DNA of 64,000 nucleotides from positions 2,148,001-2,212,000 of the forward strand of contig CP053680.1 of assembly GCA_019623805.1 (NCBI GenBank), given 5' to 3'. A program made the translations under genes and the position numbers. Positions 4,047 through 39,118 of the stretch are shown here, one piece after another. Every line of letters begins with the position of its first letter. Within the stretch, counting starts at the first letter, position 1. The notes beneath the pieces are model-generated. The model was not told the origin of the DNA. It did no database searches and saw nothing but the letters and a program-made list of their open reading frames with translations. This DNA comes from Gammaproteobacteria bacterium (ex Lamellibrachia satsuma) (GTDB lineage: Bacteria > Pseudomonadota > Gammaproteobacteria > Chromatiales > Chromatiaceae).

Positions 4047-4068
4047 TTACGTCACCACTGTTTAGGTT

Positions 4069-4096
4069 AAAGGCGCGCCATTTGGCGCGCCTTTTT
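4069..4096 (+). terminator. Rho-independent terminator after pilQ
   Basis: A perfect GGCGCGCC / GGCGCGCC stem with a four-base ATTT loop, extended by flanking A-T pairs and followed by a run of T. It closes the pil operon and separates it from aroK. Confidence 0.9.
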
Positions 4097-4153
4097 GTTT
4101 TTTTGGAAAGGATGACTTGCCGCTGCCGGTAAAATCTGGCATATCTGCTGATT

Positions 4154-4675
4154 ATGAAACGAAATCAGAATCTTTTTCTTGTGGGACCGATGGGTGCCGG
4201 CAAGACGACCGTTGGCAAACAGCTGGCGGAAGCACTGGGTATGACGTTCGAGGACAGTGATCGGGAGATCCAGCGTCGAACCGGCGTGGATATCCCCACG
4301 ATCTTCGAGTTCGAGGGTGAGGAGGGCTTTCGTAACAGGGAGCGGGCCGTCATCGACGACCTCTCTGCGCAGGAAGGCGTCGTGCTGGCAACCGGAGGTG
4401 GCGCTATCCTGGATGCGGACAACCGGCGCAATCTCTCCTCCAGAGGCATAGTGGTCTATCTCTACTGCACGCCTGAGCAGCAGTACGACCGGACCTATCG
4501 TGATCGCAATCGACCGTTGTTGCAGACCGAGAATCCTCTGGCCAAACTGGAGAGTTTGATGGAGCAGCGGGACCCCCTCTACCGACAGACTGCGGATCTG
4601 GTGGTGATTACCGAACAGCGTAACACTCAATCCGTGGCTCGCGAGGTTCAGGAAAAACTGGAATCGTTGGATTAG
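4154..4675 (+). CDS. aroK: Shikimate kinase
   Basis: 173 aa, the usual length for AroK. It phosphorylates shikimate to shikimate 3-phosphate with ATP, step five of chorismate synthesis. Visible motifs are the Walker A loop GPMGAGKTTVGK (residues 11-22), the shikimate-binding DSDREI segment with Asp and Arg, the FRNRE motif and the GGGA shikimate loop (ATGGGAIL). The lid arginine region is RDRNRPLL. It is separated from aroB by a MITE-like palindrome rather than joined directly to it. No Shine-Dalgarno of note. Confidence 0.95.
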   Translation: MKRNQNLFLVGPMGAGKTTVGKQLAEALGMTFEDSDREIQRRTGVDIPTIFEFEGEEGFRNRERAVIDDLSAQEGVVLATGGGAILDADNRRNLSSRGIVVYLYCTPEQQYDRTYRDRNRPLLQTENPLAKLESLMEQRDPLYRQTADLVVITEQRNTQSVAREVQEKLESLD

Positions 4676-4834
4676 GGAGCCTCTGAACAAGTCATGGACC
4701 TACAACTTGCGGCTGAAATGCACTGCTTCTTCGTTGGAAATCTTCGCAATAGCCTGCTATTACGTGCGATTTCCGCCTCAAATCAGCGCATTTCATCTCA
4801 CAATCTGAACGGCCCAGACTTATTCAGAGGCTCC
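4676..4834. repeat. MITE-like palindromic element, 159 bp, 18-bp terminal inverted repeats
   Basis: The element begins GGAGCCTCTGAACAAGTC right after the aroK stop and ends with the inverted copy GACTTATTCAGAGGCTCC, 17 of 18 bases matching. The interior holds further inverted pieces (GGAAATC / GATTTCC and TGAAATGC / GCATTTCA), so the whole can fold as one long hairpin. It has no coding capacity. Size, terminal repeats and intergenic position fit a miniature inverted-repeat element; no clear target duplication is visible. Confidence 0.7.
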
Positions 4835-4871
4835 TTAACGGCTCACAAACAATAATTGAGAAGGAATCAGC

Positions 4872-22573: not shown

Positions 22574-23116
22574 ATGGATCGCCGCGAACAGATACTCAGC
22601 GTGCACGCCCTTTTTATCAACGAAGTGGTAAAGAGCGGCACTGACCCGGACCGCAAAGTCGAATTTGAGCAGCTGCTGAAGGCGGCTGAAAATAACGAGT
22701 GGACCGACTTGGTGGCGGCCATCCGGCGCATCATGGGCGGTCGCCGGGATATAGAGATATTGAATGGCCTCGATGAGGAGGATCAGGTCATCGCAGAAGC
22801 GATCCTGAGGGGGTTGCAGGATCCCTCCACCCTGCCCGATCCCAACGCCAAACCTGATCCGGCCCAGGCAGCGCCGGGACTGGCATCCATGATCCATGCC
22901 GCTGCGACCGGCAATGTGCAGGCGCTGCAGCTGATCGCGGATATGGCGGACCAGATGAGCAGGGCAGGTGGTCCCATGGCACAACTGGCTTCGGTGATTC
23001 GTCCGCTGATCAATGGCGAGAGGAATCCGGATAAGCTCTGCAGGAAGCTGGACGAATCCACTGAGAAGATGGTGCTGGCCATCCTTGAGGAATTGAAGTC
23101 GTTGGAGCAGCATTGA
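22574..23116 (+). CDS. Conserved hypothetical protein
   Basis: 180 aa from the ATG at 22574, which has AGGA seven bases upstream; the frame is open further upstream only into the REP palindrome. The protein is helical and acidic, with DRREQILSVHALFINEVVKS at the start, no signal peptide and no membrane helix. A low-complexity PNAKPDPAQAAPGLASM region sits in the middle. I do not recognise a family with a known function. Its stop overlaps the start of the DUF423 gene (TGATG), so the two are translationally coupled. Confidence 0.7.
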   Translation: MDRREQILSVHALFINEVVKSGTDPDRKVEFEQLLKAAENNEWTDLVAAIRRIMGGRRDIEILNGLDEEDQVIAEAILRGLQDPSTLPDPNAKPDPAQAAPGLASMIHAAATGNVQALQLIADMADQMSRAGGPMAQLASVIRPLINGERNPDKLCRKLDESTEKMVLAILEELKSLEQH

Positions 23117-23487
23117 TGGCGCGCAATTTCCTTTTTATCGGCGCGGTGAGTGGTTGTCTGACAGTCGTCATTGGTGCCTTTGGCGCCCACAGTCTGAAAG
23201 AGCTGGTCACCCCAGAGATGCTGCTGGTCTTCCAGAAGGGTGTCCACTATCAGGGAGTGCACAGCCTGGCGCTGTTGGCAGTGGGCTTGCTGGCGCTTCA
23301 CACACGTTCGACGGCACTAACAATTTCCGGCTGGTCTTTTATCACCGGCATACTGCTCTTCTCCGGCAACCTCTATCTGCTCGTCCTCACAGGCGTGAAT
23401 CCGTGGGGCATGGTCACCCCCATTGGCGGCACTGCATTTATCGTCGGTTGGATATCACTCGCCCTGGCGGCGCGACGTATCGGCTAA
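23116..23487 (+). CDS. DUF423 membrane protein (YgdD-like)
   Basis: 123 aa with four predicted transmembrane helices. The pattern GAVSGCLTVVIGAFGAHSLK and the C-terminal MVTPIGGTAFIVGWISLA are typical of DUF423. Function is unknown in the family. The start ATG overlaps the preceding stop, and its own stop TAA (23485-23487) overlaps the ATG of the original start of the methyltransferase gene, which is now cut by an insertion sequence. Confidence 0.88.
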   Translation: MARNFLFIGAVSGCLTVVIGAFGAHSLKELVTPEMLLVFQKGVHYQGVHSLALLAVGLLALHTRSTALTISGWSFITGILLFSGNLYLLVLTGVNPWGMVTPIGGTAFIVGWISLALAARRIG

Positions 23488-23502
23488 TGTCAGATCTGAC
23501 CC

Positions 23503-25013
23503 GAATGGCACTTACTTAAGAACTAACATATTGATATAACAATAAAAAAAGGCTGGTTCAGGTGATAAGATGCAAATCGCCAAACCCACACCAATCAATT
23601 CAGGAACCAGCCTTAATGCATCCTAGCCAACGCGTCCGTATACATCAACAAAAACGTATCAGTGCCCACGCTGCAAACAGCGACTCCTATGAGTTCTTCA
23701 ACCTGCTGACCGCCCCGGAATTCCTGGATAAAGTGGAATCATTACTACCTGACCACCGGGAACGCCTGTTTCCCCCAACTGAGACGCTATCGATGTTTCT
23801 GGCACAGGCAATGAGTGCCGATCGCTCTTGTCAGAGCGTGGTAGATGATGCAGCAATCAAACGATTGATGGGGGGACTCTCAGCCTGTAGCACCCATACG
23901 GGTGCATACTGCAGGGCACGGAAACGGCTACCAATGGAAATGGTTTCTACATTGGCTCGTTACACTGGACGCATGATGACCGAGTCCACCCCGGAGACTT
24001 GGCACTGGCGAGGACGGCCTGTCAGGTTAGTGGATGGGGCAACCGTTGCATTGCCTGATACAACGGACAATCAGGAAGCCTATCCTCAGCCACGTAGTCA
24101 AAAACCTGGTTTGGGTTTTCCTCTTTGCCGCTTTGTCAGCATCATTTGCCTTGCCAGTGGTGCAGTACTTGATACAGCCATGGGACCTTGCCGGGGAAAG
24201 GGAAGCGATGAGCAGTCATTGCTTAGATCAATGCTGGATACCCTGGAAGCGGGTGACATCCTATTAGGGGATGCCTTTTTCGCAACCTATTTCCTGTTGT
24301 GTGCATTGCAGGAAAAAGGCATGGATGGTGTTTTCGAACAACATGGTGCACGGAGACGTAGTACGGATTTTCGCCGTGGTCAGCGACTGGGGCAGCGTGA
24401 CCACTTGATAGAACTGCATAAGCCAAAGAAAAAGCCCGACTGGATGAGCCGGGAAGCGTACGACCAGGCACCAGACACACTGAACGTGCGGGAGCTGCAT
24501 ATCGGCGGAAAAACTTTAGTGACAACGCTGCTTTGTTCGAAGCAAACAAGCAAAACAGCCCTGAAAACACTCTATCATGATCGCTGGCAGATCGAGTTGG
24601 ATCTGCGTAACATCAAGACCACCCTGGGTATGGAGATATTGAGTTGTCGCACTCCGGCTATGGCGGAAAAAGAGATCTGGATCTATCTGTTGGCCTATAA
24701 CCTAATCAGACTTTTGATGGCTCAGGCAGCTCTGTTGGCCGACCTGATACCCCGCCAACTCAGCTTCAAGCACACCTTGCAGTTGTGGCTTTCCTGGAGG
24801 CGGGGCGATCCTGGAAATTACGATGATGAAAAACTTGGCCGCTTGTTCATCCTAATTGCACAACAGCAAGTCGGGAAGCGACCAGGACGCATTGAACCGA
24901 GGGCACTCAAGCGACGAGCGAAATCCTTTCCTCTACTTGTCAAACCCAGGCATGCAGCGAGGGAGGAAGTCAGGATAAATGGACATCCCAAGAAGCTTAA
25001 GTAAGTGCCATTT
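23503..25013 (+). mobile_element. IS4-family insertion sequence, 1511 bp
   Basis: The ends are AATGGCACTTACTTAAG (23504-23520) and its inverse (24996-25012), an 18-bp terminal repeat with one mismatch at the outermost base. AGATCTGACCC is present on both sides (23492-23502 and 25014-25024), an 11-bp target duplication as known for IS4-family members. The element carries one transposase gene whose stop codon lies in the right terminal repeat. It interrupts the methyltransferase gene after its fifth codon. Confidence 0.93.
23616..25004 (+). CDS. IS4-family transposase
   Basis: 462 aa from the ATG at 23616 (AGGAACC upstream); an upstream frame extends to 23562. DDE residues are visible: Asp in LVDGATVALPD, Asp in ILLGDAFFATYFL and Glu in YHDRWQIELDLRNIK. 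That last segment fits the IS4 signature Y-x2-R-x3-E-x6-K exactly. The frame is intact, so the enzyme may be active. The stop TAA is part of the right inverted repeat. Confidence 0.93.
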   Translation: MHPSQRVRIHQQKRISAHAANSDSYEFFNLLTAPEFLDKVESLLPDHRERLFPPTETLSMFLAQAMSADRSCQSVVDDAAIKRLMGGLSACSTHTGAYCRARKRLPMEMVSTLARYTGRMMTESTPETWHWRGRPVRLVDGATVALPDTTDNQEAYPQPRSQKPGLGFPLCRFVSIICLASGAVLDTAMGPCRGKGSDEQSLLRSMLDTLEAGDILLGDAFFATYFLLCALQEKGMDGVFEQHGARRRSTDFRRGQRLGQRDHLIELHKPKKKPDWMSREAYDQAPDTLNVRELHIGGKTLVTTLLCSKQTSKTALKTLYHDRWQIELDLRNIKTTLGMEILSCRTPAMAEKEIWIYLLAYNLIRLLMAQAALLADLIPRQLSFKHTLQLWLSWRRGDPGNYDDEKLGRLFILIAQQQVGKRPGRIEPRALKRRAKSFPLLVKPRHAAREEVRINGHPKKLK

Positions 25014-25935
25014 AGATCTGACCCCCTTTGCCAATCGTCTGCGCAAAAACTTTCGCCACTGGAGCAAGTGGGCCAAACGTCGGGAGGTAAGCTGTTACCG
25101 TATCTACGATCGGGATATTCCAGAATTTCCCCTGGCCATCGACTGGTATGAGGGACAGGTGCATGCCCAGGTGTTTGCCCGCAAGGGAATAGATGATCTG
25201 GACGAGGTACAGGAGAAGGCTATCGCGGGGGTTATCTGTGAGGTGCTGGAACTACCGGTCGAGGCGCTTGCGTTCAAGACCCGGCGTCGGCAGAAAGGGG
25301 CAGCGCAGTATGAGAAGAGCCGGATCTGGGGCAGGCCAAAAATTGTGCACGAGGGCGGACTGGCCTTCGAGGTCGACCTGCACAGCTATCTTGATACCGG
25401 CCTCTTTCTTGACCACCGAAATACACGGGCCATGGTGCGGGAGCGTGCATCAGGGCGGCGTTTCCTCAATCTGTTTGCATACACCGGCAGTTTTACCGTC
25501 TATGCAGCGGCGGGTGGTGCTGAGGGCTCGGTCACTGTCGACCTCTCCAATACCTATCAGGCTTGGAGTCAGCGCAATCTGCAACTGAACGGCTTCAGGG
25601 GTAAATCGCATCAGTTGGTGCGCGAAGATGTCTTCAAGTACCTGCATCTGTCCAGAGAGCGTGAGCGTTTCGATATGATCATGCTCGACCCGCCGAGTTT
25701 CTCCAATTCAAAAAAGATGCGCGATGTCCTGGATGTGCAGCGTGATCATCCCAAGTTATTGGAGGGGTGCGTGCAACTGCTTAATCCCGGCGGCGAGATT
25801 ATCTTCTCCAACAATCTGCGCAAGTTCAAACTTGATCCGGCGATTGCGGAGCATGCTGAAGATATCACCCGCCAAACCGTTCCGGATGATTTCAAGCGTC
25901 ATACCTCACATCGTTGCTGGCTGTTCAAGGCCTGA
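24979..25935 (+). CDS. RlmK/RlmI-like SAM-dependent 23S rRNA methyltransferase, 5' end replaced by an IS
   Basis: 318 aa. The PUA-like N-part (YDRDIPEFPLAIDWYEGQVH) and Rossmann methyltransferase domain (FLNLFAYTGSFTVYAAAGGA; catalytic-type motif IMLDPPSFSNSK) match the RlmK half of RlmKL. The native start was ATGTCAGATCTGACC at 23487 (MSDLTPF). The IS cut it there, but the duplicated AGATCTGACCC keeps DLTPF in frame with a new ATG at 24979 inside the IS. That ATG has GGGAGG 12 bases upstream. The product is therefore probably intact apart from 12 IS-encoded residues. Confidence 0.85.
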   Translation: MDIPRSLSKCHLDLTPFANRLRKNFRHWSKWAKRREVSCYRIYDRDIPEFPLAIDWYEGQVHAQVFARKGIDDLDEVQEKAIAGVICEVLELPVEALAFKTRRRQKGAAQYEKSRIWGRPKIVHEGGLAFEVDLHSYLDTGLFLDHRNTRAMVRERASGRRFLNLFAYTGSFTVYAAAGGAEGSVTVDLSNTYQAWSQRNLQLNGFRGKSHQLVREDVFKYLHLSRERERFDMIMLDPPSFSNSKKMRDVLDVQRDHPKLLEGCVQLLNPGGEIIFSNNLRKFKLDPAIAEHAEDITRQTVPDDFKRHTSHRCWLFKA

Positions 25936-29853: not shown

Positions 29854-29956
29854 ATGGAGAGAAGGCGTTTATTTTTTGCACTTCTGTAAAAATGAACCCC
29901 TTTCTTGTGCGATCAGTAGATGAGTTTCCTCAAGGTGTAAGAGTAGCGATTGGATC

Positions 29957-30385
29957 TCATCGTGCCAAGGAGTGCCAGAAGTCTTTGAGGTTATTTTGCC
30001 CGAGTGACGCTTTCAAGCGAGGGAGGTTCTTTTTGAGCACCTCCTGGTAGAGAAAGAGAATGGCACTAAGCGCCTGATTATGAGTCGACGTGGCAACATT
30101 TCTGTCGACGGCAAGATGAGACAGAAAGGTTTCAATCTCTTTGGCGCCCATCTGCTCGGGGTGGCGTTTGTCGTGATAAAGGATAAAACGACGGATTCAT
30201 TCGGCGTATGCCTGCTCAGTCCGAATACTATAGTGTTTAACTCGGATTATATTTCGAACACGAACCAGCAGACGGAGTTTACCTTCCTTAGTCATGATGC
30301 ATTTCCCTATATCCTTTAGGTAATCTATATTATGCTGTTGGGAAGTAAAATCAATAGGTTGAAAGTATTCTGGCGGATTAGTCAT
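29957..30385 (-). pseudogene. Integron integrase (IntI-like) remnant
   Basis: The minus-strand frame encodes HYSIRTEQAYAE, then TGA, then IRRFILYHDKRHPEQMGAKE and FLSHLAVDRNVATSTHNQAL followed by LSAILFLYQEVL. These are the N-terminal SAM-like DNA-binding part of IntI-type tyrosine recombinases. The TGA stands exactly where the family has Trp (YxxWIRRF), a one-base nonsense change. After LYQEVLKKNLP the homology ends and the frame stops at 29957, so the whole catalytic domain with its R-H-R-Y residues is missing. The gene points away from the cassettes on its right, as expected of intI. Confidence 0.85.
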
Positions 30386-30542
30386 CAGTTTTGACGTGTT
30401 TTATCACGTCGTTTAGGACGCCTATATATAGTTAGGCAAACAAAAAAATGATGTACATCCGAAATCGTCAAGTTATGAGAATAAGTGGCATTATGCTTGG
30501 TGCATATCACCTCGAATTAACGTTAACCATTTAGAGATAAGT
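30386..30542 (+). promoter_or_regulatory. attI-like site and presumed cassette promoter region
   Basis: Between intI and the first cassette lies AT-rich DNA with a perfect inverted repeat GACGTG-TTTTAT-CACGTC (30393-30410), a TATATATAG tract (30424-30432) and a core site GTTAACC (30522-30528). Recombination at G|TTAACC would place the first cassette at 30523. The inverted repeat may be an integrase or repressor binding site. No well-spaced -35/-10 pair could be fixed. Confidence 0.55.
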
Positions 30543-31271
30543 ATGAAATATATACCATCGTTACTTTCTTGTTTTCTTTTATCTTGCTCCTTCAATATAC
30601 AGGCCAGTCCAAATTATTGGGTTAAACACTCTGGCGATAGAATGAATATTATCAAACAAGGAGATTTTAGTGGAACCATTGACCTACAAGATCTAGAAAA
30701 TATAGATCACCTATTTGCCGTAGGCCCACTTGAAGGTTTAAAGGGTGAAATAACTATCAGCAATAGTAAACCATCAATAAGCACACTTACCAAAGATAAA
30801 CAGCAAAAAGATGTGTCCAGCTTCAAGCATAAGGCAATTTTCTTGGTTTACGGGAGTGTTAAAGAATGGAAAGAAATTGTAATTAGTAAAGAATTAAATT
30901 CGCTGAATGAAATCGAACAATTTATAAAAGAACGCGCTGTAAGGCACAATCTGCCGTTGGATAAGGCATTCCCCTTCAAAATTAAAGGAATGGCTGAAAC
31001 AATCACATACCATGTTATCTATAAACAAGATAGTAAACCTCATAACAAAAAAGAGCATCAGCGTTCAAAAGCTAAATTTAGCAAGAAAAATGAAGACAAC
31101 ACGATAATTGGCTTTTGGTCAGACGCAAAAGGAGAAGGCGTATATACTCACCCTAATAAGAGAACTCATATGCACTATATATCAGAGTCTTCTAAAGACT
31201 CCGGTCATATCGATGCTATTAAACTTAACAGTGGTGCGGTTCTTTTTATACCTAAACCCAATGAGCAGTAA
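30543..31271 (+). CDS. Secreted acetolactate decarboxylase-like protein (cassette 1)
   Basis: 242 aa with a signal peptide (about 1-22, with SLLSCFLLSCS; a lipobox is possible). FAVGPLEGLKGEITISNSK matches the start of the alpha-acetolactate decarboxylase fold. Near the C-terminus THMHYISESSKDSGHID gives His-x-His and a third His 11 residues on, the same spacing as the three zinc ligands of the Bacillus enzyme. GAVLFIPKP closes the domain. A metal-binding exported member of the family is likely; the substrate need not be acetolactate. It follows the attI-like core directly. Confidence 0.65.
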   Translation: MKYIPSLLSCFLLSCSFNIQASPNYWVKHSGDRMNIIKQGDFSGTIDLQDLENIDHLFAVGPLEGLKGEITISNSKPSISTLTKDKQQKDVSSFKHKAIFLVYGSVKEWKEIVISKELNSLNEIEQFIKERAVRHNLPLDKAFPFKIKGMAETITYHVIYKQDSKPHNKKEHQRSKAKFSKKNEDNTIIGFWSDAKGEGVYTHPNKRTHMHYISESSKDSGHIDAIKLNSGAVLFIPKPNEQ

Positions 31272-31272
31272 C

Positions 31273-31386
31273 ACTTAACGCATTGTTATAAAGATAATGT
31301 CTGGCTTATTTCAATTGCCTATCAATACAATACACCCGACCGCTACGGTCGCTGCGCTCACTTCGCGTCGGGTGATTGTAGGCGTT
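31273..31386 (+). other. attC site 1, split by an IS1182-like element
   Basis: ACTTAAC (31273) opens the site. Long arms CAATACACCCGAC (31328-31340) and GTCGGGTGATTG (31367-31378) pair. The site runs to GCGTT at 31386, where the insertion begins; the remainder (GTTAGCC) resumes at 34637 after the insertion sequence. Confidence 0.75.
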
Positions 31387-32663
31387 GAGGCTGTAGAAAA
31401 ACCCAAAAAACGGTAAAATATGGGACACGGTAAAAGGCTAAAGGAATTGGATCATAGCCAGGTACAAGGACTACAACTACGATCAGATGAAAATGATCCC
31501 TGTGGCTTTTGATCGTCAGATATTAGCTGGCAGTTTTGAATATTCTCTCGCTTGGTTGATCGACCAGGAGCTCAATCTCTCTTCATTTGAGTCCCACTAT
31601 CATAACGATGACAACGGTCGTCCTGCTTACGATCCCCGCCTCTTACTGAAAATTGTCATCCTGGCCTATTCCAAAGGCATTACCAGCAGCCGTCAGATTG
31701 AAAAACTCTGTCATGAGAACATCATTTTCATGGCACTTTCGGCAGACACGCGCCCCCATTTCAGCACCATTGCCGATCTCTTCAGTCAGGTCGTACTGAT
31801 GTGTGATGACCTGGGCCTGATCGGTAAGAAGATGTTTGCCATAGACGGTTGCAAGCTGCCTTCCAATGCCTCCAAGGAGTGGAGCGGTACCCATGCCGAG
31901 TTAAAAAAGAAACGGCAGAAGATTGATCGTGCCGCTCGCCGCATGTTACACCGGCATCGAGAAGAGGATGTGGCGGAACTGCTACCGGACATACACGCCA
32001 GAGAGCAGGCACAGATCAAGAAGCTGCGCGCTGCCTCGCGCAAGATCAAGACCTTTCTTGCATCGGAGAACGAGCGTACAGGCAGCAGCGGCAAAGCGGT
32101 GAAGAGTAATATTACTGATAACGAAAGCGCCAAGATGAAAACCTCGCATGGTGTGATCCAGGGCTACACCGGCGTAGCAGCGGCAGACAGTCAATATCAG
32201 GTTGTCGTTGAGGCTGAAGCCTTCGGGCAGGGTCAGGAGCATGATCTGCTGAAACCGGCCATTGAGTCGATCCACGATACGTTTAGCCAGACAAATACCA
32301 AGACACAAGCCAAGATCAGAGAGACCAAGATCACGGCGGACTCCGGTTACCACAACAGAAAAAGTCTGGAGTACCTGGAGTCGGAAGGGATAGATGATTA
32401 TCTGGCCGACACCGGTTTTCGATCCCGTGACCCACGTTTCAAGGATCACAAGGAAAAACCTGAGCGTAACCGGCGCAAAGTGCAGGCCCGCTTCACTCAG
32501 TCAGATTTTCGTATCGACCGCAAACAACAGACTGCTCACTGCCCGGCAGGTCACGCGATGTGGCTCAAGGCGAAACAGGCTCGTATCGGTCACCATCTGT
32601 TCATGCAGTTCCAGGCCTATGAAAAGGACTGCGCAGGTTGCACACTGAAAGTACGCTGCCTAA

Positions 32664-34187
32664 TTCTACTTTGTCAGATTAGATCTATAAGTAACTCACT
32701 GAATAATATAAAATATATGCTGTGAATTTCTTGGCAATCATCGTAAGGAAGAGCATCAAATGACAAGCACCAAGGTCATTTGAATTACCTGATACGCGCA
32801 TAAGTAGAATCGATCGCATAGCGGAGCGATTCCAACGTTTCCAGTACCGCTTTGAATCCCATTTTCGAAGCAAGACGAGGTCGGTGTTTCAACCGGTCAC
32901 ACACTATCTCAAAGGCCTGATGCAAGCGCAGAGAAAGAACATGGAACGCATGGAAGAGGTGGTTGCAGGCGCAGATGATCAGCGTCTCCAGCATATGCTC
33001 ACCGAGTCCCCGTGGGATCATCGTGCGGTGTTAGACCAAGTGGCGCTGGAAGCCGATCAATGGCTGGGTGGAACCGCGGATACCTGTCTGTTGCTCGATG
33101 AGAGTGGCCTTGCCAAGAAGGGTAAACATTCAGTGGGGGTTAAACGCCAATGGAATGGCCGCCAGGGCAAGGTGGATAACTGCCAGGTTGGTGTATTCGC
33201 AGCACTGGGTAAAGGGCACTTGTCCACGCTGATAGATGAACGTCTCTATCTACCCAAAGAGTGGGTATCGAACCCGGCTCGCTGTCGCAAGGCGGGTATC
33301 CCGGAAGTTGAACGGAAACATCAAAGCAAGTCAGAGTTGGCGCTGGAGATGGTGCGTCATCAGAGGACGCTTGGCCTGCGTTTTGCCTGGGTGGGTGCAG
33401 ATGGGGGATACGGGAAGGATCCGGCTTTTCTGAGGGGTTTGGAGGCGATGGGTGAAACCTTTGTGGTGGACATCCACAAAGACCAACAGGTCTACCTGGA
33501 AGATCCACAGCCGTTCATACCGGAGAGCACGACAACGCGCGGTCGTCGTCGAAGTCGTCTGCAAGCCCAGGCAGCCCGTCTGCGCGTTGACCAGTGGCTC
33601 AATGAGCAACGGGACAGCGAGTGGCAGCAAGTGGTATTACGGGATAGCAGCAAGGGCAAACTGCGCGTCGAGATCCTGCATCATCGGGTTTGGCTTTGGG
33701 ATGGAAAAGAAGCCCAGGCACATCAATGGCACCTGATTGTACGACGAGAGGTCAATTCACCGGAGACGATTAAATACACCTTGTCGAATGCACCGGAAGA
33801 AACGCCATCCCATTGTCTTGCAAAGATGCAGGCGCAGCGGTTCTGGGTTGAGCGTTCGTTCCAGGATGGTAAGAGTGAATCAGGTCTTGCTGATTATCAG
33901 GCCCGTAAATGGAAATCCTGGCATCACCATATGGCCTTGGTCATGATGGCGATGTTATTCATGCTCGAAGAGCGAATTGTGCAAAAAGATGATCACCCCT
34001 TACTCAGTTGTTCAGACATCGAATCGCTATTGCGTGCCTTCCTGCCACGGCGAGATATTGAACGCGATGAAATACTACGGCAAATGACGAAACGGCATCG
34101 TAAACGACAAGCGGCTATCGACTCCCAATATCGAAAACAGACGCTGGAACAGTCGGTTGCCGGGTGATGGAATCTGACAAAGTAGAA
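32664..34187 (+). mobile_element. IS701-like insertion sequence, 1524 bp
   Basis: TTCTACTTTGTCAGATT (32664-32680) and its perfect inverse AATCTGACAAAGTAGAA (34171-34187) are the ends. CTAA is duplicated on both sides (32660-32663 and 34188-34191), which fits the YTAR target rule of the IS701 family. It lies within the IS1182-like transposase gene. Confidence 0.93.
32884..34167 (+). CDS. IS701-family transposase
   Basis: 427 aa from GTG at 32884. LLLDESGLAKKGKHSVGVKR (first Asp), WVGADGGYGKDPAFLRGLEA (second Asp) and WVERSFQDGKSESGLADYQ (Glu) form the DDE triad of the DDE_5 / IS701 group. In-frame codons upstream give SRIDRIAERFQRFQYRFESH, which looks like the real N-terminus, but they begin at ATA (32800), with no ATG, GTG or TTG before it. 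Translation may use GTG 32884, a non-canonical start, or be defective. Confidence 0.9.
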   Translation: MFQPVTHYLKGLMQAQRKNMERMEEVVAGADDQRLQHMLTESPWDHRAVLDQVALEADQWLGGTADTCLLLDESGLAKKGKHSVGVKRQWNGRQGKVDNCQVGVFAALGKGHLSTLIDERLYLPKEWVSNPARCRKAGIPEVERKHQSKSELALEMVRHQRTLGLRFAWVGADGGYGKDPAFLRGLEAMGETFVVDIHKDQQVYLEDPQPFIPESTTTRGRRRSRLQAQAARLRVDQWLNEQRDSEWQQVVLRDSSKGKLRVEILHHRVWLWDGKEAQAHQWHLIVRREVNSPETIKYTLSNAPEETPSHCLAKMQAQRFWVERSFQDGKSESGLADYQARKWKSWHHHMALVMMAMLFMLEERIVQKDDHPLLSCSDIESLLRAFLPRRDIERDEILRQMTKRHRKRQAAIDSQYRKQTLEQSVAG

Positions 34188-34664
34188 CTAAGGAGCGTCC
34201 AACAGATCACACCCCGACAGATCAACGTCACACTGGATATCACACAGGAGCAGAAGGCAGGCATCATCGAACGCATGAAGCGCAAGATCGATAGTGTGGC
34301 AGGACGCCATATCTACAGCCAGAGGCTGGGTACCGTGGAGCCGGTGTTTGGTCATATCACAGATGCCATCGGCATCCGGCGGTTCAGTCTTAGAGGCAAA
34401 CACAAGGTGGATGGTCAATGGAAATTGATGATGATGCTACACAACATCCTCAAGATTCACCGTTATGGATGGGCATGGGGTTAGTGGATGGAAATGGCGG
34501 CGGTTACGAGATGGATTTAGACAGAAACTACGCAGTGATTGAAAATACGGATCAATTAACCGATTAATGAAAAAGCCTTGTCGAAAATCGACTCCATGCA
34601 GGATGCCGTGTGAAATGTTGGTTTTTCGACAAGCTCGTTAGCCGTAAAAAAGGAGGTATCACAC

Positions 34665-35081
34665 ATGATCGAACCAAAAAGCTCATTTCCCGTATTTATC
34701 GTTAAGGATCTCGATGTAGCGAAATCCTTCTACACAGAGAACCTTGGCTTTGATGTTGTCTTCTCGGGTGATTGGTATATTCACCTAGTTTCGAAGTCAG
34801 GCGTTCAGGTTGGTTTTATGTTGCAGGATCAACCCACTCAACCACCAATATTTCAAAAACCATACATTAGCGAAGGCGTCATTTTCAGCTTGGAAGTAGA
34901 AGATGCAGATGCCGCTTTCGCAGTAGCTAAATCGAAATCGCTTAATATCGCGCTCGAGTTGCGGTCTGAGGGCTGGGGGCAGCGACACTTCTGTATCCAG
35001 GATCCGAACGGGGTTTATTTGGACATTGTTCAGTCTTTTGAGCCAACCGAAGAATATCAGAGTGATTATGAATCGGAATAA
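34665..35081 (+). CDS. VOC (glyoxalase/bleomycin-resistance-like) protein (cassette 2)
   Basis: 138 aa single VOC module pair. KSSFPVFIVKDLDVAKSFYT and NLGFDVVFSGDWYIHLVSK open the first beta-alpha-beta-beta-beta unit; RHFCIQDPNGVYLDIVQSFE closes the second. Such proteins bind or modify small toxic electrophiles or antibiotics; this one cannot be assigned a substrate. AAAAAGGAGGTATC before the ATG is a strong ribosome binding site. It overlaps the next gene by 14 bases inside the same cassette. Confidence 0.85.
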   Translation: MIEPKSSFPVFIVKDLDVAKSFYTENLGFDVVFSGDWYIHLVSKSGVQVGFMLQDQPTQPPIFQKPYISEGVIFSLEVEDADAAFAVAKSKSLNIALELRSEGWGQRHFCIQDPNGVYLDIVQSFEPTEEYQSDYESE

Positions 35082-35331
35082 AAACCTTACCAACCTTAAA
35101 AATATCGGCAAGAAAATTGCCGGTCGATTGAAGGAAGTAGGGATTATTTCAGAAGATGATTTAAGGATAGTTGGCGCTGTTGGCGCACATCGTCTGATCA
35201 AGGAGAGTCATCCGAATGAGGCATTGCCTGTCTGTTACTACCTATATTCATTTGAAGGCGCTTTGACTGACAAGCATTGGAATGAAATTGGTGAGCAAAG
35301 AAAACAGCAGCTCAAAGCACAAGTCGGCTAA
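35068..35331 (+). CDS. TfoX C-terminal domain protein (cassette 2)
   Basis: 87 aa from ATG 35068. TNLKNIGKKIAGRLKEVGI and LRIVGAVGAHRLIKESHP match the TfoX C-terminal, helix-hairpin-helix-like domain found alone in many bacteria. It has no N-terminal TfoX part and is not evidence of competence control. Its start lies within the end of the VOC gene, so the two form a coupled pair within one cassette. Confidence 0.8.
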   Translation: MNRNKNLTNLKNIGKKIAGRLKEVGIISEDDLRIVGAVGAHRLIKESHPNEALPVCYYLYSFEGALTDKHWNEIGEQRKQQLKAQVG

Positions 35332-35418
35332 CAAGCGATTTGACCATACAAGGCGTTTCCAGTCGGATATTTTGCTCTGCTGCGCGCCGCAAAATCCCGC
35401 TGAAACGCGACGTTATGT
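35326..35418 (+). other. attC site 2
   Basis: GGCTAAC (35326-35332) to GTTATGT (35412-35418). The arms TTTCCAGTCGG and CCGCTGAAACG and an inner ATTTTG / CAAAAT pair make a long imperfect hairpin. It is about 80 percent alike over some 80 bases, judged by eye, to the attC at 37680-37761. Confidence 0.85.
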
Positions 35419-35441
35419 GCAACACAATTCAGAGATCTTTC

Positions 35442-35915
35442 ATGAACCTTATATTCCGACTGTTTAGACTATTCATAGCTTCATTTTTCAAATCGAGGCT
35501 TCGAGTAGAAAGGCCGACAAACTCATTGATCTTGCGAGTTCTCCCAAATGATATCGACCTCAATATGCATATGAATAATGGTCGGTATCTAACAATCTGT
35601 GATTTATCCAGAGTGGACATGTTTATCCGTACTGGGCTTGCAAGAACAATGATCAAAGAAAAGTGGATGCCAATTATTACTGAACACACTATGAAGTACA
35701 TAAAACCATTGATGCCATTCCAAAAGTATGAGGTAAAAATGGAAGTAGCCGATTTGGATGGTAAATCATTTCAGATGTTACATTCTTTTCACATAAACAA
35801 CAAAATCGTTGCCGAAGGTACATCAAGAGGAATCATACTCAGTAAGACCGGTGTTATAGCACCAACAGAAGTTATGAAGAAAGTTACCGAACGTTTAAAC
35901 AAAAATGCTACATAA
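35442..35915 (+). CDS. Acyl-CoA thioesterase-like (4HBT) protein (cassette 3)
   Basis: 157 aa from ATG 35442; an earlier ATG at 35415 overlaps the attC core. A hydrophobic start (MNLIFRLFRLFIASFFKSRL) leads to a hot-dog fold: VLPNDIDLNMHMNNGRYLTI has the Asp-His-Asn arrangement of 4-hydroxybenzoyl-CoA-type thioesterases, and ITEHTMKYIKPLMPFQKYEV continues the family pattern. It probably hydrolyses an acyl-CoA; the substrate is unknown. Confidence 0.82.
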   Translation: MNLIFRLFRLFIASFFKSRLRVERPTNSLILRVLPNDIDLNMHMNNGRYLTICDLSRVDMFIRTGLARTMIKEKWMPIITEHTMKYIKPLMPFQKYEVKMEVADLDGKSFQMLHSFHINNKIVAEGTSRGIILSKTGVIAPTEVMKKVTERLNKNAT

Positions 35916-35966
35916 CAAAAATAGCCAGCCGCTCTCCTTCGTTGGTAGCTGATTTTAACGTTATAT
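35911..35966 (+). other. attC site 3
   Basis: ACATAAC (35911-35917) to GTTATAT (35960-35966), 56 bp, which is short. The ACATAAC is the exact inverse of the GTTATGT at the start of the same cassette and overlaps the end of the thioesterase gene. Confidence 0.82.
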
Positions 35967-35987
35967 GTGAAAGGTATAGAGCCCGTT

Positions 35988-36407
35988 ATGGATAAAATTG
36001 AGAATCCTGATGTTGCAAAAGTATTCAAATATTATCCACAATCCATTCGAGAACGATTATTGTTTCTTCGTCAGCTGGTTCTGGACACAGCAACAGTAAC
36101 AGAGGGTGTCAATAAATTGGAAGAAACTCTGAAATGGGGAGAGCCAAGTTACATTACGAGGAACGGGAGTACAATCAGAATGGGTTGGAAAGAATCAATG
36201 CCAAATCAATATGCAATGTATTTTCATTGTAAAACTCAGTTAGTTGATACATTCAAAGAACTTTACAAAGATAAACTCAAGTTTGAAGGCAACAGAGCTA
36301 TTGTGTTTCATGAGGATGATGAAATACCTATTGAAGAGATAAAACATTGCATTAGCTTATCTCTCACCTATCATAGTAGAAAACACCTGCCAATGCTGGG
36401 CGTATGA
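35988..36407 (+). CDS. DUF1801 protein (cassette 4)
   Basis: 139 aa from ATG 35988; GTG 35967 is an alternative. VNKLEETLKWGEPSYITRNG and TIRMGWKESMPNQYAMYFHC match DUF1801 (YdhG-like), small soluble proteins related to iron-binding frataxin-like folds, function unknown. They are common as integron cassettes. The A- and T-rich codon use is unlike that of the flanking chromosome. Confidence 0.85.
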   Translation: MDKIENPDVAKVFKYYPQSIRERLLFLRQLVLDTATVTEGVNKLEETLKWGEPSYITRNGSTIRMGWKESMPNQYAMYFHCKTQLVDTFKELYKDKLKFEGNRAIVFHEDDEIPIEEIKHCISLSLTYHSRKHLPMLGV

Positions 36408-36414
36408 ATAGAAC

Positions 36415-36489
36415 AAATAACAAGTCACTCCTGCTGCCCGCCTACATCGCTGTCGCTCCTTCGGCGGCAGCAGAGTTCAACCGTTAGCC
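36415..36489 (+). other. attC site 4
   Basis: AAATAAC (36415-36421) to GTTAGCC (36483-36489), 75 bp. Arms CTGCTGCCCGCC and GGCGGCAGCAG pair almost perfectly. Confidence 0.85.
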
Positions 36490-36513
36490 GTAGGGATGAA
36501 AATAGGGAAAAAT

Positions 36514-36774
36514 ATGGCACAAGATTTCACCAAATTGAAAAGAGATAGATACCAGATGCCAGAATACATAAAGCAGGCATTGAAAAATAATGGTGTGGCA
36601 CCTGATTATGAATCGCGTCCTGCATACCAACAAAATGACTACATTGGCTGGATAGAAAGAGCAAAAAGGCAAGAAACAAAAGAAAAACGTCTCCAGCAAA
36701 TGGTCGATGAACTAAAAGTAGGCGGTGTTTATATGAAAATGAAGCATCCAGCATCACGCAAGAATAAACGGTAA
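36514..36774 (+). CDS. YdeI/OmdA-like small protein (cassette 5)
   Basis: 86 aa from ATG 36514 (AGGGA five bases upstream; ATG 36496 lacks room for one). YQMPEYIKQALKNNGVAPDY and YIGWIERAKRQETKEKRLQQ match the C-terminal bacteriocin-protection YdeI/OmpD-associated module, whose helices end in Lys-rich tails. A protective role against envelope-targeting peptides is known for some relatives only. Confidence 0.72.
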   Translation: MAQDFTKLKRDRYQMPEYIKQALKNNGVAPDYESRPAYQQNDYIGWIERAKRQETKEKRLQQMVDELKVGGVYMKMKHPASRKNKR

Positions 36775-36799
36775 TCATGTGTATCAATCACCATACAAA

Positions 36800-36900
36800 G
36801 TAAATTCAGCGGATAGCGCAAAGCGTCAGGAATTTTGCTACGCTACAGCCACATCGCTTTTGGCTGCCGGTGATGCGAAGCGTTGAACTAAGCGTTATGT
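36800..36900 (+). other. attC site 5, degenerate
   Basis: The right core GTTATGT is clear at 36894-36900, and GCTGCCGGTGATGCGAAGCG precedes it. The left inverse core expected for this cassette (GGCTAAC) is absent, so the left half has decayed or recombined. Confidence 0.5.
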
Positions 36901-37296
36901 GTCAGAAATTGCATTCTGCAAGTTTAGGTGCAAGTGAAAAGGCTCAAAATCCTTGTCGGAATGGAGTAACGGAAGGTTATTGTTAATACAATATGTCGCA
37001 ATCATTACATCAATAGTTTTTCTTACGGTCACGCCGCGCTTTCGTAGAAAGCGGAAGTTATCTGCACTCCTTACAGCAATATCTTGGCCGCCTAAATCAA
37101 AAATGGTAAGAGAAGTTAATAATTCTTTTGCAGTTTCATAATCGCGGTCATGTCTAAAGCCTTGCAGAACTTCAATAAGAACCAAATCACCAAGTCCTAT
37201 TGGCTCCGTGCCAAGCAGGCTATCAAGTCTGTTCGTTTGAATAGACAGATTACCATTAAAAAAATCAATCCAAACGCTAGAATCGACAAAGATCAA
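36895..37296 (-). CDS. VapC-type PIN-domain ribonuclease toxin
   Basis: 133 aa PIN domain. MIFVDSSVWIDFF carries the first metal-binding Asp (residue 5); IEVLQGF has the conserved Glu; TIDVMIATYCINNNLPLLHS has further acidic residues and DKDF the last. VapC toxins cleave specific RNAs when free of their antitoxin. The stop lies within the attC core. It overlaps vapB by 4 bases (ATGA) and is read opposite to the other cassettes, so it must use its own promoter. Confidence 0.88.
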   Translation of the reverse strand: MIFVDSSVWIDFFNGNLSIQTNRLDSLLGTEPIGLGDLVLIEVLQGFRHDRDYETAKELLTSLTIFDLGGQDIAVRSADNFRFLRKRGVTVRKTIDVMIATYCINNNLPLLHSDKDFEPFHLHLNLQNAISDT

Positions 37297-37487
37297 TCGT
37301 CTGATCTCATCTCATCAAGATCTCCTTCCCAAGTTAACTTGCCTCTGAATCGGCGAATATTCTCTTGTTTCTTTAGTTTAATCAAAGTCTTAAGGCCAAG
37401 CTCAACAGCCTCGCGTTTGGTTCTTAAGCCAGTCATTTTCAAGGCGTTAGCCATGAGGTCGTCATCAATTACAATGTTTGTACGCAT
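37293..37487 (-). CDS. VapB-type antitoxin
   Basis: 64 aa from ATG 37487 (GGG eight bases upstream; a TTG at 37499 is less likely). MRTNIVIDDDLMANALKMTG and LRTKREAVELGLKTLIKLKK form a ribbon-helix-helix type DNA-binding N-terminus; the acidic tail binds the toxin. It precedes vapC and overlaps it, as in type II toxin-antitoxin operons, which it presumably represses. Confidence 0.86.
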   Translation of the reverse strand: MRTNIVIDDDLMANALKMTGLRTKREAVELGLKTLIKLKKQENIRRFRGKLTWEGDLDEMRSDD

Positions 37488-37564
37488 GTCAAAACCCAAT
37501 GTGTATGAAATTAACTTATGCTACACATTAAAGCCGCAAAACAAACCTTGGTCAAGGAGCAATC

Positions 37565-37761
37565 ACATAACAAGTGCCCCCGCTTGTTAACGGTCTGTGA
37601 GACCATGGCATCATCGGGCTACTGGATCGGTAACTTGTTTGCCCAAGTTACGGGCTCCATTTAATCAGATTAATGAAAGGATTTGACCATACAAGGCATT
37701 TTCAGTCGGAAATATTTTTTCGCTGCGCTCTCAGAAATCCCGCTGAAATGTGATGTTAGGT
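37565..37761 (+). other. Composite attC region 6
   Basis: ACATAAC (37565-37571) is the exact inverse of the start of the vapBC cassette. The right core GTTAGGT is at 37755-37761, 197 bp away, too long for one attC. CTTGTTAACGG at 37581-37591 could close a first, very short site. The right part (37680-37761) is a good copy of attC 2 with TTTTCAGTCGG and CCGCTGAAATG arms. An empty or eroded cassette probably lies between them. Confidence 0.65.
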
Positions 37762-37782
37762 GTATATAGATCCTGAGGAAAG

Positions 37783-38418
37783 ATGATGCCAATCGAATCA
37801 ATCGTAGCGTTTGTCATCGCATCGGCTTTGCTAAGCCTTGCGCCAGGCCCGGACAATATCTTCGTACTTACTCAGTCAGCTTTATATGGTAAGAAATCAG
37901 GTGTTCTGGTTACGCTTGGTCTTTGTACGGGGTTAATCGTTCATACAATCGCTGTGGCGCTGGGTGTCGCCGCAATATTCCAAACTTCAGTCGTGGCATT
38001 TACTGTTCTGAAAGCAGTGGGGGCCTTGTACTTGGCATACTTGGCTTGGCAGGCATTCCAAGCATCGGTCAGCATCCTCGAAGCACCAAGCTCAAATCTG
38101 CGTTCTAGTGGTGCTTTGTACCGTCGCGGAATCATCATGAATATCACCAATCCAAAGGTATCGATTTTTTTCCTTGCTTTCTTACCGCAGTTCGCATCAC
38201 CTGGGCATGGCCCAATCGCGCCGCAGATATTTCTTTTAGGTGGCATATTCATCTGCGTCGCCTTGGTGGTTTTTTGCGTAATAGCTTTTTTGGCGGGTGC
38301 CTTGGGCGGATGGTTGCACAACTCGCCGAAAGCCCAAGTCTATCTGAACCGAATTGCAGGCACCGTATTCGCGGGTTTGGCTCTGAAATTGGTAACCACT
38401 AGTGCAGATGGCCAGTAA
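37783..38418 (+). CDS. LysE/RhtB-family exporter (cassette 7)
   Basis: 211 aa with about six transmembrane helices. IVAFVIASALLSLAPGPDNI with the conserved APGPD and the later RRGIIMNITNPKVSIFFLAF are the LysE/RhtB signature. Members export amino acids or related compounds such as threonine and homoserine lactones; this substrate is not known. GAGGAAAG precedes the paired ATGATG start. The cassette begins with TTAGGT just after the attC. Confidence 0.9.
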   Translation: MMPIESIVAFVIASALLSLAPGPDNIFVLTQSALYGKKSGVLVTLGLCTGLIVHTIAVALGVAAIFQTSVVAFTVLKAVGALYLAYLAWQAFQASVSILEAPSSNLRSSGALYRRGIIMNITNPKVSIFFLAFLPQFASPGHGPIAPQIFLLGGIFICVALVVFCVIAFLAGALGGWLHNSPKAQVYLNRIAGTVFAGLALKLVTTSADGQ

Positions 38419-38420
38419 GC

Positions 38421-38476
38421 ACCTAATGAATAAGGTTCAGATCGCGCGAAGCCGCGATCTGAACCGTTTGTTGGAA
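38421..38476 (+). other. attC site 7
   Basis: ACCTAAT (one base off the ACCTAAC expected from its cassette start) to GTTGGAA at 38470-38476, 56 bp. GGTTCAGATCGCG and CGCGATCTGAACC form a near-perfect stem, the strongest hairpin in the array. Confidence 0.8.
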
Positions 38477-38493
38477 TTGGCTACATATTCAAA

Positions 38494-38546
38494 AGCTAGA
38501 TAATTCAGTCGGTCTCCTTGATCGGCGGCTGATTATTACGTTATGT
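38494..38546 (+). other. attC site 8, following an empty cassette
   Basis: AATTCAGTCGG and GGCTGATTATT arms end in the core GTTATGT (38540-38546). Only about 20 bases lie between the previous core and this site, so the cassette between them carries no gene. Confidence 0.6.
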
Positions 38547-38575
38547 GACCATAAACAAAGGGCGCTTGAAAATAA

Positions 38576-39118
38576 ATGATCTGGTATTCAATATCGCTCA
38601 GGCAACAGGGTGGAAGTAATCAGAGGAAACTTCTTGCTGAATACAATATACATGGCTCAAAGTTGGTTGCATGGTCATTAATGATATTCTCACTAATATT
38701 TGGACTCGAAGCGATAGTCGAAACAATCAATGCAATTATGGAGAGTCAGCTGTCAAATTTATCAAACGTAGACGTGGCATGGGTAATTTTCAGTTTTATA
38801 TTGTTTCTGCTGGGTTTGGATCAGATGTTTATAAAGGGGAAGCTAATAATTAATAAGAATTCAGTATTATGTAAATACAAGCATTTGTTTGGGAATAGTG
38901 AGTGGAATGAGCCAATGAATAACTATAAGGGATTAATAAGGAAAAAAGAACTAAATAGAGCTTCAGGTGCATTCGACCAGATTGTTTACACAATATGGCT
39001 AATCCACAAGAATAAAAAAAAGAATGTGAAGATATATAAAGCTTGGAGTAATGATGGTATTGAAAAGGATATATTAATGTACCAAGAAATGCTTGGCTTA
39101 CCTGAGGTAATTGCGTAA
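38576..39118 (+). CDS. Two-TM membrane protein of unknown function (cassette 8)
   Basis: 180 aa. Two hydrophobic helices (SLMIFSLIFGLEAIVETINA, about residues 34-53, and WVIFSFILFLLGLDQMF, about 69-85) are followed by a basic, probably cytoplasmic C-terminal half. I do not recognise a family. AT-rich codon use matches the other cassettes. It begins 30 bases after the attC core, and the attC that should follow it is degenerate. Confidence 0.65.
   Translation: MIWYSISLRQQGGSNQRKLLAEYNIHGSKLVAWSLMIFSLIFGLEAIVETINAIMESQLSNLSNVDVAWVIFSFILFLLGLDQMFIKGKLIINKNSVLCKYKHLFGNSEWNEPMNNYKGLIRKKELNRASGAFDQIVYTIWLIHKNKKKNVKIYKAWSNDGIEKDILMYQEMLGLPEVIA

What the first reader, a model, noticed from the sequence alone, without database searches (positions are those of the whole stretch)
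23487..25030. IS4 insertion that re-creates the start of the gene it hit
The native start MSDLTPF (ATG 23487) is cut after codon 5. The 11-bp duplication AGATCTGACCC gives back DLTPF, and an ATG within the IS (24979), preceded by GGGAGG, continues in frame through the IS terminal repeat into the methyltransferase. The IS thus supplies start and ribosome binding site, replacing the first residues. The transposase stop and the new start overlap, so expression may now depend on transposase transcription.
Basis: partly seen in the sequence, partly recalled or inferred. Interest (0 to 1): 0.6.

Follow-up and report, generated by a model that had tools for sequence, protein, structure and literature searches.

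The report
Jumping gene supplies new start codon
In a tubeworm-symbiont bacterium, a mobile DNA element landed just behind the start codon of a ribosome-modifying gene, and an ATG near the element's own end happens to read in frame into the gene, so the gene may survive the hit; the same kind of rescue is seen once more in a sister symbiont, but expression is untested.

Summary
A 1,511-bp IS4-family element (23503-25013) with an 11-bp target duplication (AGATCTGACCC) lies 16 nt into a single-copy gene for a stand-alone RlmK-type 23S rRNA methyltransferase. Four same-genus tubeworm symbionts have the empty site and the native start MSDLTPF, overlapping the stop of the preceding DUF423 gene. In this genome the only start that gives full-length protein is the IS ATG at 24979, in a frame different from the transposase and overlapping its end by 26 nt. 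The ATG and GGGAGG are coding by-products of the conserved transposase C-terminus, not a dedicated signal. GGGAGG is 12 nt from the ATG (long), and the ATG lies in a predicted hairpin, so initiation is probably weak and helped by ribosomes finishing the transposase. The IS is recent (four identical copies), so the open frame alone does not prove selection or expression. Start donation therefore recurs, but function is unproven.

The parts
23116..23487 (+). DUF423 gene, intact; its stop TAA overlaps the native methyltransferase ATG (TAATG)
   Evidence: PF04241, E 1.1e-27; sequence
23487..23489 (+). native start codon of the methyltransferase, now leading only to MSDLTRMALT*
   Evidence: same start at the empty site in four same-genus genomes
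23492..23502 (+). target-site duplication, left copy (AGATCTGACCC)
23503..25013 (+). IS4-family, IS4-subgroup insertion sequence, 1511 bp; four 100% identical complete copies in the genome
   Evidence: family features in PMC2266710
23549..23614 (+). perfect 11-bp inverted repeat AAGGCTGGTTC/GAACCAGCCTT folding over the region just before the transposase ATG
   Evidence: RNA fold z = -2.9
23616..25004 (+). transposase (DDE, Y-2-R-3-E-6-K present)
   Evidence: NF033592 222 bits, cut-off 115; PF01609; YREK motif
24961..24966 (+). GGGAGG, possible Shine-Dalgarno, 12 nt from the ATG
24979..25935 (+). re-capped ORF, 318 codons: MDIPRSLSKCHL (IS-encoded) + DLTPFANRL... RlmK-type methyltransferase
25014..25024 (+). 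target-site duplication, right copy
24961..25031 (+). predicted hairpin pairing the start region AAAUGG with CCAUUU of the IS end, and GUCAG with CUGAC of the TSD
   Evidence: MFE -26.6 kcal/mol for 24945-25033, z -1.9; ATG unpaired probability about 0

Best explanation
A recently active IS of the IS4 subgroup inserted by ordinary target duplication into its preferred palindromic site (GGGTCWGACCC-like), 16 nt into a stand-alone rlmK gene, in the same orientation (shown). By chance of frame, the ATG inside the last codons of the transposase gene reads through the terminal repeat and the TSD into rlmK, so the gene keeps an intact frame with a short N-terminal swap (12 IS-encoded residues in place of MS) outside the conserved domain (shown). 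Native translation was probably coupled to the DUF423 stop (TAATG, no good SD). It is probably replaced by weak translation from ATG 24979, helped by ribosomes that finish the transposase at 25004 and open the hairpin over the ATG (inferred). The result is most likely a lowered but non-zero supply of RlmK (inferred).
For: Empty site with the same native start in four same-genus genomes. Exact TSD, and four identical IS copies each with an 11-bp TSD. Single gene copy. Only one possible full-length start. The RlmK domain matches from residue 15 of the fusion, so the lost residues are outside the domain. Purifying selection on rlmK across the genus, dN/dS 0.04-0.14, with no excess of amino-acid changes on this lineage (2 nonsynonymous, 4 synonymous). 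Native start has no SD at normal spacing (-0.7 kcal/mol), whereas the IS start reaches -11 kcal/mol with the long-spaced GGGAGG. Blocking the tnp-terminator region frees the ATG in the fold. A second in-frame start donation, fecR in sister genome G004.
Against: No transcript, peptide or ribosome data. The IS is too recent for frame retention to mean anything. SD spacing is long, and the SD stays paired in the fold even when the ATG is freed. In sister species G003, with an IS at the same base, the rlmK region is missing from the assembly, so the gene may be dispensable. The leader hairpin may suppress transposase translation, and with it the coupling.
Confidence: 0.55

Rival explanations
1. 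The gene is simply inactivated: a very young pseudogene whose frame is open only because the insertion is recent, with the in-frame ATG a coincidence without effect.
For: Four identical IS copies imply a recent burst. Start codon and SD are predicted to be buried. The gene region is absent from the G003 assembly, where an IS sits at the same base. Of the five intact right ends of this IS in this genome only this one gives a long ATG-frame ORF.
Against: A same-frame, same-offset rescue also occurs at fecR in G004. Gene-start insertions in the ATG frame are rarer by chance (rough expectation 0.03 in about 14 events). The conserved domain is complete.
Confidence: 0.35
2. A shorter protein is made from a downstream start such as GTG 25159, independent of the IS ATG.
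For: GTG 25159 is the next in-frame start.
Against: It would remove 60 residues, including conserved N-terminal parts of the RlmK domain (profile match starts at residue 15).
Confidence: 0.05
3. The insertion is old, shared with sister species G003, and the IS-capped gene has been kept by selection since their split.
For: The G003 contig ends 16 bp into an IS at exactly the same base; flanks are 96.8% identical.
Against: The G003 copy has the G003-type terminal repeat (ACTTT), while the local copy is identical to three other local copies. That fits two independent hits on a preferred target, and rlmK is not in the G003 assembly.
Confidence: 0.15

Closest known systems
IS4 family, subgroup IS4 (De Palmenaer et al. 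2008, PMC2266710)
   Same: Length 1511 bp (range 1400-1650), ends -AATR...WTW, YREK signature, single transposase ORF, 11-bp duplication (range 10-13)
   Different: No name could be assigned (no ISfinder access). The target palindrome GGGTCWGACCC is its own; my recollection is that the related IS231 prefers GGG-N5-CCC.
ISAba1 insertion in adeS of Acinetobacter baumannii (PMC3498117)
   Same: An IS inside a gene, with the downstream part still expressed from IS-borne signals and a functional product
   Different: There the IS gives an outward promoter and the product is an N-terminally truncated AdeS. Here the IS offers start codon and RBS and nearly the whole protein is kept; no outward promoter was found by consensus scan.
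RlmKL / RlmK (NF008748, PRK11783)
   Same: Residues 15-317 of the fusion align to positions 396-701, the RlmK half
   Different: Stand-alone gene, below the curated cut-off for the bifunctional enzyme. No other match in the genome covers the profile's RlmL half.

Membership tests
IS4 family, subgroup IS4 | DDE transposase with Y-(2)-R-(3)-E-(6)-K signature in one ORF | tested here: met
   YHDRWQIELDLRNIK at transposase residue 320; NF033592 222 bits versus cut-off 115
IS4 family, subgroup IS4 | ends -AATR--------WTW and direct repeats of 10-13 bp | tested here: met
   GAATGGCACTTACTTAAG, 11-bp TSD at all four complete local copies; definition from PMC2266710
IS4 family, subgroup IS4 | clusters with the subgroup in a transposase tree | not tested
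   no ISfinder set at hand
RlmK 23S rRNA methyltransferase | full RlmK domain of RlmKL | tested here: met
   NF008748 positions 396-701, E 2e-115; below the curated cut-off because the RlmL half is lacking
RlmK 23S rRNA methyltransferase | methylates 23S rRNA (E. coli G2069, m7G) | not testable with these tools
   needs rRNA analysis
start-codon donation by an IS | the IS ATG is the only in-frame start for the full product | tested here: met
start-codon donation by an IS | protein produced from the IS start | not testable with these tools
   needs N-terminal proteomics or ribosome profiling

The most novel reading that the evidence does not exclude
This IS subfamily carries at its right end a portable translation-start cassette (GGGAGG + ATG, frame-shifted from and overlapping the transposase stop). 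It repeatedly re-caps genes hit just behind their start codon, so insertions at gene starts are tolerated and the genes become translationally coupled to the transposase. Cases: rlmK here (and the same site hit in G003), and fecR in G004.
Probability: 0.13. Interest if true: 0.6.

Novelty: new variant of a known kind. Interest (0 to 1): 0.42.

Why it matters
IS insertions inside genes are routinely annotated as gene loss. If an IS end can donate a start codon and couple the gene to its transposase, some such 'disrupted' genes are alive, and expression of a housekeeping rRNA methyltransferase would be tied to a mobile element. Two cases at the same offset in different genes of one symbiont genus make this testable with existing proteomes or by reporter fusion.

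Tried and rejected
A dedicated outward start signal: rejected, because ATG and GGGAGG are codons of the conserved transposase tail (...EEVRINGHPKKLK*); one distant relative lacks the ATG (TAC GGG CAT) and an old fragment lacks GGGAGG. Complementarity between the IS tail (GTCAGGA) and the target (TCTGAC) as a guide for targeting: rejected, because relatives with other tails use the same target. A third same-offset case in G004 (contigs C203/C144): an ATG at -5 with an open frame of about 100 codons, but no family match, so not counted. Several other right ends enter long ORFs in the GTG frame (GTG 25005-equivalent; L001, L005, L048, L049), but L001 is interior to an MCP-like gene and there is no SD, so no rescue is claimed. 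Resolving whether G003 deleted rlmK through IS recombination: its contigs do not settle it. Searches for a paper describing IS-donated start codons found only indirect precedent.

Full report
What is there. Window 23116-23487 is an intact DUF423 gene. Its stop TAA shares a base with the ATG of the next gene (TAATG). Sixteen nucleotides into that next gene a 1,511-bp IS begins (23503-25013), flanked by AGATCTGACCC on both sides. Downstream the gene continues to 25935 and is followed by a DedA-like (VTT-domain) gene. The encoded protein is a stand-alone version of the RlmK half of RlmKL (NF008748 positions 396-701, E 2e-115). It is present once in the genome; the next match is a 33%-identical paralog. 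No other match in the genome covers the RlmL half of the profile.

The empty site. The genome belongs to a genus of vestimentiferan tubeworm symbionts: named relatives are symbionts of Escarpia laminata, Lamellibrachia barhami and L. anaximandri. Four same-genus genomes have the uninterrupted gene with start ATGTC(A/T)GATCTGA(C/T)CCC, MSDL(T/I)PFANRL, overlapping the DUF423 stop as TAATG or TGATG.

The IS. Four complete copies in the genome are 100% identical, each with an 11-bp duplication; a fifth has a damaged left end and a sixth is an old fragment. Family features (YREK, ends -AATR..WTW, 11-bp TSD, length) fit subgroup IS4 of the IS4 family. From 17 other insertions of the subfamily in the genus, the duplicated target has the palindromic consensus GGGTCWGACCC; the rlmK site scores above the mean of those sites (9.35 vs 6.70), with 5 positions as good in 64 kb, about 340 per genome.

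The new start. In the gene's frame an in-frame TAA stands directly before ATG 24979, so this is the first possible start; the next ATG/GTG/TTG is 60 codons further on. The ATG lies 26 nt before the end of the transposase gene, in another frame. Across the subfamily the region is conserved as transposase sequence (NGHPKKLK*), so the ATG is a by-product. GGGAGG pairs strongly with anti-SD (-11 kcal/mol) but 12 nt away; at normal spacing the value is -6.0, against -0.7 for the native start, which therefore probably relied on coupling to DUF423. In the predicted RNA the start region pairs with the IS end and the TSD (AAAUGG/CCAUUU, GUCAG/CUGAC; z -1.9). Blocking the stretch that a ribosome ending at the transposase stop would cover frees the ATG, though not the GGGAGG. 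This suggests exchange of one coupling partner (DUF423) for another (transposase), with lower efficiency. That is inference.

Transcription. IS and operon point the same way, and no convincing promoter or terminator was found by consensus scan, so read-through from the operon is possible. An 11-bp perfect inverted repeat ends just before the transposase ATG. From general knowledge of IS10/IS50, such fold-back structures block translation of the transposase from read-through transcripts, which would also reduce coupling here. Untested.

Is it more than chance? For a random same-strand insertion inside a coding region, one frame in three would continue from the ATG, so a single case means little. 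Two further facts raise interest. First, in sister species G003 (upstream flank 96.8% identical) the contig ends 16 bp into an IS at exactly the same base, with the repeat variant typical of G003 copies. This looks like an independent hit on the same preferred site, or a shared insertion later homogenised. The rlmK side is missing from that assembly. Second, in G004 (the symbiont of L. anaximandri 'Palinuro', matched by contig coordinates) the IS lies between contigs C79 and C171 with TSD GCGTTATACCC. The joined flanks read ATG TTG CGT TAT ACC CGT..., the start of a secreted FecR/LysM protein, and the IS ATG gives MDIPRNLSKCHS-RYTRFITAIALLILLL..., in frame to the end. Both insertions lie at the same offset (ATG plus 2 nt, then the TSD). 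A rough, post hoc estimate expects 0.025 such gene-start, ATG-frame insertions in about 14 events (P about 3e-4 for two or more). Survival of insertions that keep genes readable would explain this; so might an unrecognised target bias.

Selection. rlmK is under purifying selection in the genus (dN/dS 0.04-0.14) and the lineage with the IS shows 2 amino-acid versus 4 silent private changes. Because the IS is very young this does not test function after insertion.

Literature. Closest experimental precedent found: ISAba1 in adeS, where IS-borne signals drive a truncated but active product (PMC3498117). No paper was found that describes an IS4 element donating a start codon and coupling to its transposase, but the held library is partial.

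Verdict. Functional rescue is plausible but unproven, at roughly even odds. It is an ordinary transposition event with an uncommon, recurring consequence.

Noticed in passing
L151:1-1506 and L152:2040-2060 (sister genome G004): Second start donation by the same IS: insertion at ATG plus 2 nt of a FecR/LysM secreted-protein gene, with the IS ATG in frame (448-aa native ORF).
   Followed up: yes
L086:3324-3355 (G003:C7 end): An IS of the same subfamily sits at exactly the same base of the rlmK start in a sister species; rlmK and the following genes are absent from that assembly.
   Followed up: partly
window 23549-23614: Perfect 11-bp inverted repeat covering the leader just before the transposase ATG, resembling fold-back protection against read-through transcription.
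   Followed up: partly
insertions in L001-L005, L048, L131-L138, L151-L170: The IS subfamily prefers the 11-bp palindrome GGGTCWGACCC, often within REP-like CAATAGGGGTCTGACCCCTATTG contexts.
   Followed up: partly
L001 (genome 4055089-4056599): An identical IS copy interrupts what looks like a chemoreceptor (MCP)-type gene, about 690 nt from the first start codon.
   Followed up: no
window 2959-4837 versus L039:5025-6909: A 1.9-kb segment of the window is found, 94% identical and inverted, downstream of rlmK in the L. anaximandri (Eratosthenes) symbiont, suggesting a mobile or rearranged block.
   Followed up: no
window 29900-39100: Stretch with further transposase-like ORFs (31487-32725, 32884-34167) and sparse genes between rlmK and polA; hardly matched in the G003 assembly.
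   Followed up: no
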